Source of the DNA: Thermomonas brevis | Lineage (GTDB): Bacteria > Pseudomonadota > Gammaproteobacteria > Xanthomonadales > Xanthomonadaceae | Direction of reading: 5' to 3' | DNA: 64,000 nucleotides | Assembly (NCBI RefSeq): GCF_014395425.1 | Contig: NZ_CP060711.1 | Coordinates: 1,984,001-2,048,000 of the forward strand | The notes under the pieces: generated by a model | The model's database searches: none | What the model was told of the DNA's origin: nothing | The model's input: the letters and a program-made list of their open reading frames with translations, nothing else | Shown here: positions 1 through 4,258 of the stretch, piece after piece | Numbering within the stretch: the stretch's first letter is position 1 | Layout of the letters: each line of letters begins with the position of its first letter | Translations under genes and position numbers: made by a program

Positions 1-1213
1 CGGGCGTCGCTTCGCGCAGCAGGCGCAGCAGCGGTTCGCGTTCATCGGCATCGACCTGCGCGAACAGCGCGACGATGCGCGGCCAGAATCGGCCCAGCTG
101 CGGCCCCAGGTGCCAGCCGCGGTGGGCGTCGAACGGCAGCTGCGCGTAGCGGCTGCGCAGCGCTTCCTGTTGGTCGATGGGCAACGCGTCGAAGCGGGCG
201 GCGGTGGCGCGCAGGGTGGCGCGCTCGGTGTCGGTCAGCGCCTGCCATTCGGTCCAGGCGCCGCGCTGCGCCGCACGCGCCTGCGGCGACAGGCGATCCC
301 AGGCCTGCATGCGGCCGGCGATGTCGCCGTCTTCCGCGATGAGCGCGGGGGTGGCGGCGTCCAGCGGCAGGGCGTCGCTGGCTTCCGCGTGCAGCCAAGC
401 CAGCAGCGGCAATCGAAGGGCCAACTGCAACTCGTATGGCGCGGCCAGCAGGTCGCGGTCGGGATGCAGGGCCGGATCGGCGGCGTCGAAGCGCGCCTTC
501 GGCGCATCGGCCGGCGGCAGCGCTTCGCGCTTCACCTGGTTGCGCCATTCGTCCAACAGCTCGCGTCCGCGCGGATGCAGGAAGAAGGTCGCGGCCAGCG
601 CCACCGCGCAGGCGGCGACGCCCAGCCACAGCCAGCGCAGGCGGCGGCGATGGGGCGGGCCGGCGTCGGTGCCGGGAGCTTGCGCCGGCGACGAGGCGTC
701 GGCGATGGGCGCGGCTTCCGGTGGCGTGTCAGGCAATGCGTCCAGCGCGCGCTGCGCGGTGGCGCGCCACGCGCGCCAGACGTCCACGTCCGGCTGGCCG
801 AGCGGGGTGCGCGGCAGGGCGTCGCGGATCCGCTGCTGGTAGGCGTCGATGCCGATGCCCAGCGCGGCCGCCGCGTCGGCGTCCTCCAGTGCGGCTACCA
901 GATGCAGCAGGACGGCGGCCCGCACCGGCGGGGCGAGCCGGGCGACGCCGGGCAGCGGGCCCGGCGTGCCGGCGACGGTCTGCGCCATCGCCGGGACCGA
1001 CAGCAGCAGGCGCCAGTATTGCCGGGGCCACTGCGCCAGCGGCCATTGGCCGGCATCCGCGGCGAAGACCCGCGCGGCCACCGCCAGCGCGCGCCGCGCG
1101 GCGTCGGCATCGCCGGCCTGGACCTGGACCAGCAGGCGGGCGCGTCGGTCCAGGCCGCGCAGGAACGCGGCCACCGCCGCAGGTCGTGGGGATGGGGGCG
1201 TATTCGCGGTCAT
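1..1213 (-). CDS. DUF3106-type membrane protein, 3' end outside the window
   Basis: The reading frame runs without a stop from ATG at 1213 to the left edge (404 codons), so the C-terminus is missing. The N-terminal half resembles a soluble helical domain rich in Ala and Arg. A Pro/Ala linker follows, then one membrane segment (WLWLGVAACAVALAATFFL, roughly residues 200-218). After the membrane there is a Trp-containing segment with the pattern LSPQARAAQRGAWTEWQALT, which is typical of DUF3106 proteins. The function is unknown. It is transcribed away from priA, and both genes share the repeat-filled intergenic region. The start was chosen because this frame is open and the opposite-strand ORFs here have only low-complexity Arg/Ala products. 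Confidence 0.7.
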   Translation of the reverse strand, partial: MTANTPPSPRPAAVAAFLRGLDRRARLLVQVQAGDADAARRALAVAARVFAADAGQWPLAQWPRQYWRLLLSVPAMAQTVAGTPGPLPGVARLAPPVRAAVLLHLVAALEDADAAAALGIGIDAYQQRIRDALPRTPLGQPDVDVWRAWRATAQRALDALPDTPPEAAPIADASSPAQAPGTDAGPPHRRRLRWLWLGVAACAVALAATFFLHPRGRELLDEWRNQVKREALPPADAPKARFDAADPALHPDRDLLAAPYELQLALRLPLLAWLHAEASDALPLDAATPALIAEDGDIAGRMQAWDRLSPQARAAQRGAWTEWQALTDTERATLRATAARFDALPIDQQEALRSRYAQLPFDAHRGWHLGPQLGRFWPRIVALFAQVDADEREPLLRLLREATP

Positions 1214-1547
1214 GGCAGGCGGGCAGGCACGCTGCATCTTAATGAGGAAGGTCTGAACCGGTCCGCGCACAAGCCGGGCTTGGGGTGCCAACGGATGCTT
1301 GACAGGCCGGAACGCGCAAGCTCCGCAAGCCACCGTGCGGGCTGCGGCCTTGGCGGTTGTGCACAGCCGTGAAAAAACCGTCACATCTGCCTGTTCCACG
1401 CCCGAGGGTTGTCGGCGGGGTACCGGGTTCCACGCTCAACCGATTGATTTCAATGGAGATTGAGAGTGTGGCGGTTTTTTGTCCATCGGGGCCGGAAGTC
1501 CATTGGAACGGGACCTGCGCACCCCCTTCCCGGGCGCATGCACAGAG

Positions 1548-1570
1548 TTATCCACAGCAAGTGTGGATAA
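1548..1570. promoter_or_regulatory. Palindromic DnaA-box pair, unit 1
   Basis: TTATCCACA at 1548-1556 and its exact reverse complement TGTGGATAA at 1562-1570 are separated by 5 bp. Both match the strong DnaA box consensus TTATNCACA. Binding by DnaA is inferred. Confidence 0.65.
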
Positions 1571-1918
1571 GGACAGTTTCCTTTTGGAAACATGAGCTTG
1601 CTGGAATTTCGTGCGCGATTTCTCAACTTTGCGCGGTAGCTGAACGGAGGCGGGGTATCCGATGGCCGCTTGACAGCCGCGTGGACGGCGGCTCCGCGAG
1701 CCGGCGGGCGGGTCGCGGGCGAACCGGTTGTGCACAGCCGGGAAAGAACCGCCCTCAACCCTGGTTCCACGATTTCGGGATGCGATCTCGCTGCCGCGTT
1801 CCACGCGCAACCTATTGATATTAAATTACTTTGCCGGCGTGGCACTTTTTTGACCATGCGCTTGGGAGCGCTGCTGGAACGGCCCTCGCGCACCCGTGCC
1901 GGCCACACATGCACAGCG

Positions 1919-1941
1919 TTATCCACAGGCGATGTGGATAA
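1919..1941. promoter_or_regulatory. Palindromic DnaA-box pair, unit 2
   Basis: TTATCCACA at 1919-1927 and TGTGGATAA at 1933-1941 repeat the unit 1 geometry with a 5-bp spacer of different sequence. Conservation of both boxes and of the spacing while the surroundings diverged argues for a selected function. The site is 110 bp upstream of priA. Confidence 0.65.
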
Positions 1942-2050
1942 GGGCGATTCCCCAGCAACAACAATGCGTTGCGTCATGTTCGTGCGGGATTCGTCAGGTG
2001 TGGCGCGCAAGCCGGCCATGCGGAGTTGCGGCCACCGCTAGACTGGCGCG

Positions 2051-4258
2051 ATGCCGATCCCGCTTCCCGTGCTGCGCGTCGCCCTGCCGGTGCCGCTGCC
2101 GCGCCTGTTCGGCTACCTGCCGCCGCCAGGCGCGGAGGCCGGGGCGGTGGCGGTCGGGCAGCGCCTGCGGGTGCCGTTCGGGCAGCGCGAGGTCTGCGGC
2201 GTCGTGGTCGGGCACGGCGAGGCGGAGCCGGGCGTGGAACTGCGCGCCGCGCTGGAGATTCTGGACGACGGCCCGCTGCTGCACGGCGAACTGCTCGCCT
2301 CGCTGCGCTGGCTGGCCGGCTACCTGCACGCGCCGCTGGGCGAGGTGCTGGCGACCGCGCTGCCGGCGTCGCTGCGCCGCGGCGAACCGCTGCCGGACAT
2401 CGCCCGCCACGGCTGGGTATTGAACGAGGCCGGCCGCACCGCGCTGCCGGCGATGCGCGCGGGCAAGCCGAAAGCGCTGGCCGCGCTGTTGGCGGAAGCG
2501 CGCGGCGAAGACTGGCTGGACGATGCCTCGCCGGGCTGGCGCACGCCGCTGCGGGGGCTGCGCGAGCGCGGGCTGGTGGAGCGCGTCGTGCCGGAGGAGA
2601 AAGTGGGGTCGGAGTCGCCTTTCCGAGGCAAAGGCGACTCCGACCCCACTTTCTCGCCCAACGCCGAACAGCAGCTCGCCATCGATGCGATCCGCGCGGC
2701 CGACGGCTTCGCCCCGTTCCTGCTCGACGGCGTCACCGGCAGCGGCAAGACCGAGGTCTACCTGCAGGCCATCGCCGACTGCCTCGCGCGCGGCAAACAG
2801 GCGCTGGTGCTGGTGCCGGAGATCGGCCTGACCCCGCAGGCGCTGGCGCGTTTCCGCGCGCGGCTGGGCGTGCCGGTGCACGCGCTGCATTCGGGATTGA
2901 ACGACGGCGAGCGCGCGGCGGCCTGGTGGGCGGCGGCCAGCGGGCAGGCGCGGGTGGTCGTCGGCACGCGCTCGGCGATCTTCGTGCCGCTGCCGGAGGC
3001 CGGACTGGTCGTGGTGGACGAGGAACACGACGGCAGCTACAAGCAGTTCGACGGCATCCGCTACCACGCCCGCGATTTCGCCATCGTCCGCGCGCGCGCG
3101 CTGGGCGTGCCCATCGTGCTGGGCAGCGCCACGCCCTCGCTGGAGACGCTGCACAACGCGCAGGCCGGGCGCTACGCGCATCTGCGCCTGCGCCAGCGGG
3201 CCGGCGCCGCGCAGCCGCCGCGCGTGCGCGTGCTGGACGTGCGCAAGCGGCCGCTGCAGGCCGGCCTGTCGGAAGACGCGCTGGGTGCGATCAGGAGCGC
3301 GCTGGACGCCGGCGGCCAAGTGCTGGTGTTCCGCAACCGCCGCGGCTACGCGCCGGTGCTGCTCTGCCACGACTGCGGCTGGAGCGCGCACTGCCCGCGC
3401 TGCAGCACGGAGGACAAGCCCACGCCGATGACCGTGCACGCGCACGGCAAGCGCCTGCAATGCCACCACTGCGGCTACCGCAAGCCGTCGCCGCCGGCCT
3501 GTCCCGACTGCGCCAGCCTGGCGTTGCAGCCGCAGGGCAACGGCACCGAGCGGATCGAGGAGGAATTGGGGGCACGCTTCTCCGACGTGCCGGTGCTGCG
3601 CATCGACCGCGGCAGCACCGGTCATCGCGACGCGCTGCAAAAGCATTTCGATGCGCTGGGCGCCAGGCCCGGCGTCCTGATCGGCACGCAGATGCTGGCG
3701 AAGGGACACGATCTGCCGAACCTCACCTTGGTCGTGGTGGTCGGCATCGACGAAGGCCTGTTCTCCGCCGATTTCCGCAGCGGCGAAAAACTCGCGCAAC
3801 TCTTGGTGCAGGTGGCCGGCCGCGCGGGCCGCGCCGACAAGCCCGGCGAAGTGCTGTTGCAGACCCATCATCCCGAGCATCCGCTGCTGCAAACGCTGGT
3901 GGGCGGCGGCTACCACGCCTTCGCCGAAGCGGAACTGGCGATGCGCGAACTGGCCGGCTTCCCGCCGTTCGCGCACCTGGCGCTGCTGCGCGCGGAGGCG
4001 AAGCACGCCGATCCGCCGCTGCGCTTCCTGCACGAAGCGAAGGAGGCGCTGCGCGAATTTCCGGTCGACGCCTCCGGCCCGCTGCCCGCCCCGATGCCGC
4101 GCCGCGCCGGCTACCAGCGCGCGCAGCTGATCCTGTCCGCGCCGCAGCGCCGCGACTTGCACGCGGCGCTGGATGCGCTGGTCCCGACGCTGTACGCCTC
4201 GCCCGAGGCGAGGCGGGTGCGCTGGTCGCTGGACGTGGATCCGGTCGACCTGTACTAG
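2051..4258 (+). CDS. priA: Primosomal protein N' (replication restart helicase PriA)
   Basis: PriA is the 3'-to-5' helicase that recognises stalled forks and loads the replisome away from oriC. The 735-residue product has the N-terminal DNA-binding domain, Walker A GVTGSGKT (227-234), the DEEH box (323-326), and eight zinc-binding cysteines in the PriA spacing (439, 442, 448, 451, 471, 474, 484, 487). The length is normal for the family except for residues about 183-202, which are encoded by a perfect palindrome inserted in frame between the N-terminal domain and the helicase core. The ATG at 2051 gives the canonical N-terminus with LPRLFGYLPP. It reads away from the DUF3106 gene across the DnaA-box duplication. 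Confidence 0.96.
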   Translation: MPIPLPVLRVALPVPLPRLFGYLPPPGAEAGAVAVGQRLRVPFGQREVCGVVVGHGEAEPGVELRAALEILDDGPLLHGELLASLRWLAGYLHAPLGEVLATALPASLRRGEPLPDIARHGWVLNEAGRTALPAMRAGKPKALAALLAEARGEDWLDDASPGWRTPLRGLRERGLVERVVPEEKVGSESPFRGKGDSDPTFSPNAEQQLAIDAIRAADGFAPFLLDGVTGSGKTEVYLQAIADCLARGKQALVLVPEIGLTPQALARFRARLGVPVHALHSGLNDGERAAAWWAAASGQARVVVGTRSAIFVPLPEAGLVVVDEEHDGSYKQFDGIRYHARDFAIVRARALGVPIVLGSATPSLETLHNAQAGRYAHLRLRQRAGAAQPPRVRVLDVRKRPLQAGLSEDALGAIRSALDAGGQVLVFRNRRGYAPVLLCHDCGWSAHCPRCSTEDKPTPMTVHAHGKRLQCHHCGYRKPSPPACPDCASLALQPQGNGTERIEEELGARFSDVPVLRIDRGSTGHRDALQKHFDALGARPGVLIGTQMLAKGHDLPNLTLVVVVGIDEGLFSADFRSGEKLAQLLVQVAGRAGRADKPGEVLLQTHHPEHPLLQTLVGGGYHAFAEAELAMRELAGFPPFAHLALLRAEAKHADPPLRFLHEAKEALREFPVDASGPLPAPMPRRAGYQRAQLILSAPQRRDLHAALDALVPTLYASPEARRVRWSLDVDPVDLY
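2597..2655. repeat. Perfect inverted repeat (26-bp arms) inside priA
   Basis: The left arm (2597-2622) and right arm (2630-2655) are exact reverse complements around a 7-bp loop. The element begins on a codon boundary (codon 183) and adds about 20 residues (EKVGSESP, then KGDSDPTF) without breaking the frame. The opposite strand reads nearly the same peptide, as expected for a palindrome. It resembles in-frame palindromic elements described in other bacteria, such as those of Rickettsia. Family membership is inferred; no second copy was seen in the window. Confidence 0.85.

What the first reader, a model, noticed from the sequence alone, without database searches (positions are those of the whole stretch)
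1291..2005. 371-bp tandem duplication carrying twin palindromic DnaA-box pairs upstream of priA
Two diverged units keep four landmarks at exactly 371 bp spacing. Each holds TTATCCACA-N5-TGTGGATAA, two consensus DnaA boxes in inverted orientation, while the surroundings have drifted. Each unit also has an AT-rich patch and a TTGTGCACA about 190 bp upstream of the boxes. dnaA and dnaN are not in the window, so this is unlikely to be the main oriC. It could be a DnaA titration or reactivation locus (like E. coli datA or DARS), a DnaA-controlled promoter for priA, or an accessory origin. A DnaA-responsive element next to the replication-restart helicase would be a new link.
Basis: partly seen in the sequence, partly recalled or inferred. 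Interest (0 to 1): 0.78.

Follow-up and report, generated by a model that had tools for sequence, protein, structure and literature searches.

The report
Twin DnaA-recharging sites beside priA
Upstream of the replication-restart gene priA this bacterium carries two copies of a DNA element laid out like the E. coli sites that recharge the replication-starting protein DnaA; one copy sits beside priA in its relatives and in many other gammaproteobacteria, a place where I found no earlier report of such sites.

Summary
In detail: two diverged ~371-bp units lie between a DUF3106 gene and priA, each with TTATCCACA-N5-TGTGGATAA. E. coli DARS1 and DARS2, read directly, have a core of DnaA boxes III-N3-II-N5-I (inverted); both window units have that geometry. 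Each unit also has one of the window's only two perfect IHF consensus sites, 111 bp before box II. The exact palindrome is in 270 of 296 family genomes; 30 of 30 fetched copies sit at priA. Outside the family, 44 of 120 genera carry it at priA, always with gap 5 (other gaps 0-12: none, but 1 genome at gap 11). A distal DnaA box, IHF site, Fis-like block and third box keep fixed spacing to box II, while the distance to priA varies. 0 of 26 Pseudomonas loci have it. GC skew places oriC near dnaA, 171 kb away. The tandem doubling is limited to some lineages but recurs. DnaA binding, ADP release and any effect on priA are untested. I file it as a new variant of DARS: priA-linked, and near dnaA in most genomes checked.

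The parts
1288..1658 (+). Repeat unit 1 (priA-distal DARS-type unit); limits approximate
   Evidence: Direct repeat at 371-bp spacing; alignment with unit 2
1357..1365 (+). Unit 1 distal DnaA-type box TTGTGCACA, -191 from box II
   Evidence: a TTWTNCACA-type box (up to 1 mismatch) at -195 to -186 in 79 of 82 family-set copies and 37 of 44 class copies
1437..1449 (-). Unit 1 IHF-binding consensus CAACCGATTGATT (YAANNNNTTGATW), -111 from box II
   Evidence: with up to 1 mismatch to YAANNNNYTGATW at -112 to -109 in 79 of 82 and 31 of 44 copies
1470..1484 (.). Unit 1 Fis-like block (G-N13-C round a T-tract), -78 from box II; 2 mismatches to the full Fis consensus
   Evidence: Sequence printed; block position; inferred Fis site
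1536..1544 (+). Unit 1 core DnaA box III (GCATGCACA), N3 from box II
   Evidence: same spacing as E. coli DARS1 and DARS2
1548..1556 (+). Unit 1 core DnaA box II (TTATCCACA)
1562..1570 (-). Unit 1 core DnaA box I (TTATCCACA, inverted, N5 from box II)
1659..2029 (+). Repeat unit 2 (priA-proximal DARS-type unit); limits approximate
1728..1736 (+). Unit 2 distal DnaA-type box TTGTGCACA
1808..1820 (-). Unit 2 IHF-binding consensus CAACCTATTGATA, -111 from box II
1841..1855 (.). Unit 2 Fis-like block, -78 from box II; 2 mismatches to the full consensus
   Evidence: Sequence printed; inferred
1907..1915 (+). Unit 2 core DnaA box III (ACATGCACA)
1919..1927 (+). Unit 2 core DnaA box II (TTATCCACA)
1933..1941 (-). 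Unit 2 core DnaA box I (inverted)
2051..4258 (+). priA, primosomal helicase, 735 aa; neighbour on the box-I side
   Evidence: PF17764, PF18074, DEAD, Zn ribbon
2..1213 (-). Divergent DUF3106 protein gene (runs off the window); neighbour on the other side
   Evidence: PF11304; a homologue was detected in 20 of 30 fetched family loci

Best explanation
Each unit is a DARS2-type DnaA-reactivating sequence, and this genome has two in tandem. Proposed mechanism: ADP-DnaA binds boxes III, II and I; the DnaA molecules on boxes I and II, inverted with a 5-bp gap, meet head to head through their AAA+ domains. IHF bends the DNA at -111, and Fis or another protein at -78 helps assemble the complex. ADP is released, and the freed DnaA picks up ATP and becomes able to fire oriC. 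The distal box at -191 may sense ATP-DnaA, as DARS2 box V does. Shown here: the geometry, the conserved parts, their rigid spacing, the priA neighbourhood, and Fis, Hda and IHF-alpha family genes above family cut-off in this genome. Inferred: DnaA, IHF and Fis binding, ADP release, cell-cycle role.
For: E. coli DARS1 (L128: boxes at 208+, 222-, 234-) and DARS2 (L129: 836+, 850-, 862-) both have I-N5-II-N3-III; the window units have the same two gaps. PMC5742627 (passages): boxes I-III have the same spacing in DARS1 and DARS2, box I opposite to II and III. The exact palindrome is in 270 of 296 family genomes, 49 of 54 genera, mostly once, with 0 for the pattern read backwards. At priA in 30 of 30 fetched family loci and, with up to 2 mismatches, in 51 of 51 non-Pseudomonas PriA loci with upstream DNA. 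At priA in 44 of 120 other genera with gap 5; gaps 0-4, 6-10 and 12 gave 0, gap 11 gave 1, reversed motif 0. Third box at N3 on the priA-distal side within 4 mismatches in 126 of 126 scored copies (2 window, 50 named, 30 unnamed family, 44 class), against 6-9 (family set) or 3-9 (class) at the mirror place. IHF in 79 of 82 and 31 of 44; distal DnaA box in 79 of 82 and 37 of 44; exact Fis consensus at -79 to -77 in 23 of 44 class copies. E. coli DARS2 has an IHF-like site on the same side and orientation at -99. Fis, Hda and IHF-alpha genes present.
Against: No binding or ADP-release data. The window's Fis-like blocks have 2 mismatches to the Fis consensus; exact Fis in only 15 of 82 family-set copies. 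The only exact Fis consensus my scan found in E. coli DARS2 (-137) lies beyond IHF, so the order differs. The window's box III has 3 mismatches to TTATCCACA. 76 of 120 class genomes and 26 of 26 Pseudomonas loci lack it at priA. Its place differs from E. coli DARS2. The same motifs could serve a DnaA/IHF/Fis-regulated promoter.
Confidence: 0.83

Rival explanations
1. A DnaA-, IHF- and Fis-controlled operator for priA (and/or the divergent gene) with no DnaA-reactivating activity.
For: Same orientation to priA in 126 of 126 scored copies; box I ends about 104-141 bp before the predicted priA start in 44 of 48 named family-set loci. E. coli DnaA regulates several genes, and DARS1 and DARS2 lie upstream of uvrB and mutH (PMC11317965, parts 1 and 2 of 4 read).
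Against: Internal spacing is rigid, but the distance to the predicted start runs from 15 to 295 bp in 43 class loci and 104 to 279 bp in 48 named loci (starts are predicted, so part of the spread may be error). No sigma-70-like promoter by consensus. Geometry equals that of two proven DARS. Of 30 fetched class palindromes 11 are at priA; of the 19 elsewhere 17 have a third box within 3 mismatches on the better side.
Confidence: 0.1
2. A DnaA titration or ATP-hydrolysis site like datA.
For: High-affinity boxes plus an IHF site, 4-17% of the genome from dnaA in 10 of 11 single-contig genomes (positions), compared with about 10% for datA in E. coli (computed from Table 1 coordinates).
Against: The core has the I-N5-II-N3-III arrangement of DARS; minimal datA is described as boxes 2, 3 and 7 with one IHF site (PMC5742627 passages). 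I did not scan datA itself.
Confidence: 0.04
3. An accessory or alternative chromosomal origin.
For: DnaA boxes and an AT-rich patch; the locus is nearer than dnaA to the antipode (about 1.952 Mb) of the dif-like site; skew between 1.81 and 1.97 Mb is mixed and is steadily positive only from about 1.98 Mb.
Against: Cumulative GC skew minimum of the sampled DNA is at about 1.82 Mb, by dnaA. The AT-rich patch resolves into IHF and Fis-type sites. In one single-contig relative (G292) the palindrome lies nearly opposite dnaA.
Confidence: 0.02
4. A hairpin element (DnaA-box hairpin priming site on single-stranded DNA, or an RNA stem-loop in the priA leader).
For: The 9-bp arms with a 5-nt loop could form a hairpin; DnaA-box hairpin priming sites are recalled from the plasmid R6K literature, not looked up.
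Against: The arms keep the DnaA-box sequence; where class copies differ, one arm usually changes alone. E. coli DARS cores are imperfect palindromes. The third box, IHF site and distal box have no place in a hairpin model.
Confidence: 0.01

Closest known systems
E. coli DARS2 (rppH-mutH region)
   Same: Core III-N3-II-N5-I; IHF-like site on the box-III side in the same orientation (-99); extra DnaA box at -197; Fis involved (literature); core about 160 bp before the rppH start.
   Different: At priA, not mutH; boxes I and II both exact consensus; IHF at -111; Fis-like block lies between IHF and core at -78, whereas the only exact Fis consensus my scan found in DARS2 is at -137, beyond IHF; distal DnaA box in the opposite orientation; duplicated here; closer to dnaA in 10 of 11 single-contig genomes checked.
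E. coli DARS1 (upstream of uvrB)
   Same: Identical core spacing; box pair TTATCCACA-N5-AGTGGATAA differs by one base from the window type.
   Different: No IHF match (up to 1 mismatch) from -320 to +60 of the DARS1 core; other gene neighbour.
E. coli datA
   Same: DnaA boxes with IHF; DnaA-regulating locus outside oriC (literature passages).
   Different: Different box arrangement by description; promotes ATP hydrolysis rather than ADP release. Sequence not compared here.
DnaA-box arrays at 313 kb of this genome
   Same: TTATCCACA boxes with an N5 inverted pair, also doubled (139 bp).
   Different: Box-N14-box-N5-inverted box; no third box at N3 (by eye); several copies in some relatives.

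Membership tests
DARS (DnaA-reactivating sequence) | Core of three 9-mer DnaA boxes, box I opposite to II and III | tested here: met
   Window boxes III, II, I at 1536, 1548, 1562(-) and 1907, 1919, 1933(-); box III is 3 mismatches from TTATCCACA in both units
DARS (DnaA-reactivating sequence) | Spacing of I-II and II-III identical to DARS1 and DARS2 (5 and 3 bp) | tested here: met
   E. coli sequences fetched, scored
DARS (DnaA-reactivating sequence) | Promotes ADP release from DnaA in vitro | not testable with these tools
   Needs purified proteins
DARS (DnaA-reactivating sequence) | Deletion lowers ATP-DnaA and initiation in vivo | not testable with these tools
   Needs strains
DARS2 type | IHF site at conserved distance on the box-III side | tested here: met
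   Perfect consensus at -111 in both units; 79 of 82 and 31 of 44 relatives at -112 to -109 with up to 1 mismatch; E. coli at -99, about one helical turn nearer. Binding untested
DARS2 type | Essential Fis site (FBS2-3) | tested here: inconclusive
   Fis-like block at -78; exact consensus in 23 of 44 class copies and 15 of 82 family-set copies; window units have 2 mismatches (by eye); order differs from E. coli. Fis gene present
DARS2 type | Genomic position near mutH as in E. coli relatives | tested here: not met
   Neighbours are priA and a DUF3106 gene; hence called DARS2-like, not DARS2
datA | datA box arrangement and stimulation of DnaA-ATP hydrolysis | not tested
   datA sequence not compared; activity needs biochemistry
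oriC | Skew minimum and dnaA neighbourhood | tested here: not met
   dnaA 171 kb away; skew minimum of sampled DNA near dnaA

The most novel reading that the evidence does not exclude
An old DARS of the gammaproteobacteria lies in the priA promoter region: one nucleoprotein switch (DnaA, IHF, Fis) both recharges DnaA and sets PriA supply, tying the initiation clock to replication restart. The E. coli sites at mutH and uvrB are relocated descendants or replacements, and some lineages tune the dose by tandem duplication.
Probability: 0.25. Interest if true: 0.87.

Novelty: new variant of a known kind. Interest (0 to 1): 0.74.

Why it matters
DARS sites have been worked out mainly in E. coli and near relatives. 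A DARS-type element with fixed layout at priA in dozens of genera gives a sequence signature for DnaA-reactivating sites in lineages where none is described in the papers I could search, shows which spacings are kept, and makes a possible link between DnaA recharging and replication restart testable. The duplicated version is a natural dose experiment.

Tried and rejected
Main or accessory origin: GC skew, KOPS-like and dif-like scans (dif and KOPS motifs recalled). Skew minimum near dnaA; KOPS counts near the locus are too few to decide.

Dispersed repeat: rejected, the palindrome is single-copy in nearly all relatives that have it.

Sigma-70 promoter in the region: none by consensus.

DARS geometry at the 313-kb boxes: rejected, no third box at N3 (read by eye, not scored by script).

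Exact Fis consensus in the window units: not met (2 mismatches, by eye).

Rows dropped before counts. One search gave 123 priA matches over cut-off; G000 and G010 (own family) and G412 (weak, partial) were left out, leaving 120. Three of the 120 stretches were short because the contig ended (G388, G345, G352), so 44 of 120 is if anything low. L162, L172 and L178 had no upstream DNA; of the 46 class copies (44 genomes) the two of G388 and G345 had too little upstream DNA, leaving 44 copies. L182, L183 and L192 were not in that set. In some searches the 30 unnamed loci were oriented by the third box itself; re-oriented them by priA and the third box was on the priA-distal side in 30 of 30. A helper script translated rpmH and rnpA in a wrong frame; those results are not used. 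My first count of class loci at priA was 12 of 30; the count is 11.

Literature: searches (at most 5-20 papers listed each). No priA-linked DARS seen in listings, abstract starts or the passages opened. PMC12371093 (titration paper) has no mention of priA or Xanthomonas in its main text. The original DARS paper is not held and supplements could not be read, so absence from print is not proven.

Full report
WHAT IS THERE. The window is genome position 1,984,001-2,048,000 of a 3.44-Mb single-contig genome. Two diverged copies of a ~371-bp unit lie between a divergent DUF3106 gene and priA. Each holds TTATCCACA-N5-TGTGGATAA (1548-1570 and 1919-1941); the exact palindrome is found nowhere else in the genome and none is expected by chance in the window. 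Only 9 exact TTATCCACA exist in the genome, 4 of them here. The two units are about 65% identical; in five elements 59 of 69 aligned bases agree, outside them 179 of 276. Among named PriA relatives the first two listed are labelled Thermomonas, while the highest identities (83-85%) belong to MAGs without a genus name, so the genome is perhaps Thermomonas (inference).

WHY DARS. I fetched E. coli K-12 DARS1 and DARS2 and scored boxes. DARS1 has boxes at 208(+), 222(-), 234(-); DARS2 at 836(+), 850(-), 862(-). Both are box I, 5-bp gap, inverted box II, 3-bp gap, box III. The window units read box III at 1536 and 1907, box II at 1548 and 1919, inverted box I at 1562 and 1933: the same two gaps. 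A review (PMC5742627, passages) states that the spacing of boxes I-III is the same in DARS1 and DARS2, that box I is opposite to II and III, and that head-to-head contact of DnaA on I and II is a prominent feature of DARS. The original report (Fujimitsu 2009) was not held.

DARS2 needs IHF and Fis (PMC4245941, passages; PMC8682772, passages, which print the IHF consensus TAAnnnnTTGATW and the Fis consensus GnnYAnnnnnTRnnC). E. coli DARS2 has an IHF-like site on the same side in the same orientation at -99, about one helical turn nearer. The genome has matches over the family cut-off for Fis, Hda and IHF-alpha.

CONSERVATION. In the family, 270 of 296 genomes (49 of 54 genera) hold the exact palindrome, mostly once; the pattern read backwards gives 0. 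In 30 of 30 fetched family loci it lies beside priA; in 20 of these a DUF3106 homologue was also detected. Among 80 named PriA loci, 3 lack upstream DNA, 51 of 51 other non-Pseudomonas loci have the pair with up to 2 mismatches, and 0 of 26 Pseudomonas loci do.

In the class, 116 of 274 genomes have the exact palindrome somewhere. Outside the family I took the DNA before priA in 120 genomes of 120 genera: 25 have the exact pair, 40 with up to 1 mismatch and 44 with up to 2, at gap 5; gaps 0-4, 6-10 and 12 give 0 of 120, gap 11 gives 1, reversed motif 0. So 76 of 120 lack it at priA. Of 30 class palindromes fetched, 11 are at priA by tblastn. Of the 19 elsewhere, 17 have a third box within 3 mismatches (better of the two sides) and 13 an IHF-like site with up to 1 mismatch near -110 or -99; L112 and L126 have neither. 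In the phylum sample, 10 of 90 genomes outside the class have the palindrome; I did not follow these.

RIGID LAYOUT. Anchored on box II: box III at N3 has 1-4 mismatches in 82 of 82 family-set copies and 0-3 in 44 of 44 class copies, while the mirror place has 6-9 and 3-9; with every copy oriented by priA the third box is on the priA-distal side (for the 30 unnamed loci). A distal DnaA box at -195 to -186 (TTWTNCACA with up to 1 mismatch) is in 79 of 82 and 37 of 44. The IHF consensus (YAANNNNYTGATW, up to 1 mismatch) at -112 to -109 is in 79 of 82 and 31 of 44; with the stricter YAANNNNTTGATW at -112 to -110 it is 78 of 82, while 42 control windows between -250 and -125 reached at most 2 of 82. 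An exact Fis consensus at -79 to -77 is in 15 of 82 and 23 of 44; in 77 of 82 family-set copies the best G-N13-C frame round an A/T tract is at -79 to -77. In the window it is 2 mismatches off the full consensus. By contrast the distance from box I to the predicted priA start ranges from 15 to 295 bp in 43 class loci and 104 to 279 bp in 48 named loci. I read this as an autonomous nucleoprotein assembly that happens to sit, or is kept, beside priA.

NOT AN ORIGIN. dnaA is at 1,814,431. The cumulative GC skew over sampled stretches has its minimum near 1.82 Mb; a dif-like site is at 234,541. Skew between 1.81 and 1.97 Mb is mixed, so this is good but not decisive. In 11 single-contig genomes where I had both positions (own, G101, G038, G096, G276, G232, G292, G313, G416, G419, G328; positions), the element is about 4-17% of the genome from dnaA in 10 and nearly opposite dnaA in G292. 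For G096, G276, G232 and G292 only the palindrome position is known and the priA neighbourhood is assumed. A twelfth, G374, has no such element at priA. E. coli values computed from coordinates in PMC11317965 Table 1 are about 21% for DARS2, 33% for DARS1 and 10% for datA.

DUPLICATION. Doubling occurs also in L130 and L134, two of the nearest loci. Two other congeneric genomes, G150 and G260, have two exact palindromes whose spacing I did not see. Elsewhere G526 has two exact palindromes 380 bp apart (neighbourhood not checked) and G300 two copies 272 bp apart before priA. It may raise DARS dose (inference).

VERDICT. A DARS2-like element, duplicated, at priA. Membership in DARS is met on both sequence features I could test; activity is untested. 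It is not filed as DARS2 itself because of place and Fis order. I found no report of a priA-linked DARS, within the limits of that library.

Noticed in passing
Genome 313,372-313,556 (L003 1478-1662): Two DnaA-box arrays, 139 bp apart, TTATCCACA-N14-CCATCCACA-N5-TGTGGACAA, between a response-regulator-like and an alcohol-dehydrogenase-like gene (names by eye), 79 kb from the dif-like site. Similar arrays (up to 3 mismatches), some in tandem, are in 13 of 60 family genomes, several copies in some. Perhaps DnaA titration.
   Followed up: partly
Family-set copies, +43 to +66 from box II; window 1591-1614 and 1962-1985: A further conserved block beyond box I (C at +43, TT at +50, TT at +60, T at +64) matching no motif I know; TT, TT present in both window units.
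   Followed up: no
L130, L134, L182, G300, G526: Tandem or near-tandem doubling of the element, 272-380 bp apart, in several lineages; some copies carry 1-2 mismatches.
   Followed up: partly
Pseudomonas PriA loci L181, L184-L191, L193-L209: No DARS-type core at priA in 26 of 26; where such a site lies in Pseudomonas was not searched.
   Followed up: no
G581, G587, G590, G603, G610, G618, G630, G633, G651, G667: Exact N5 palindrome in 10 of 90 genomes of the phylum outside the class.
   Followed up: no
L101, L102, L120: Non-priA palindromes with the IHF-like site at -99 or -100, as in E. coli DARS2, rather than about -110: two spacing classes about one helical turn apart.
   Followed up: no
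window 2597-2655: A 26-bp perfect inverted repeat with 7-bp loop inside the priA reading frame, perhaps an inserted dispersed repeat.
   Followed up: no
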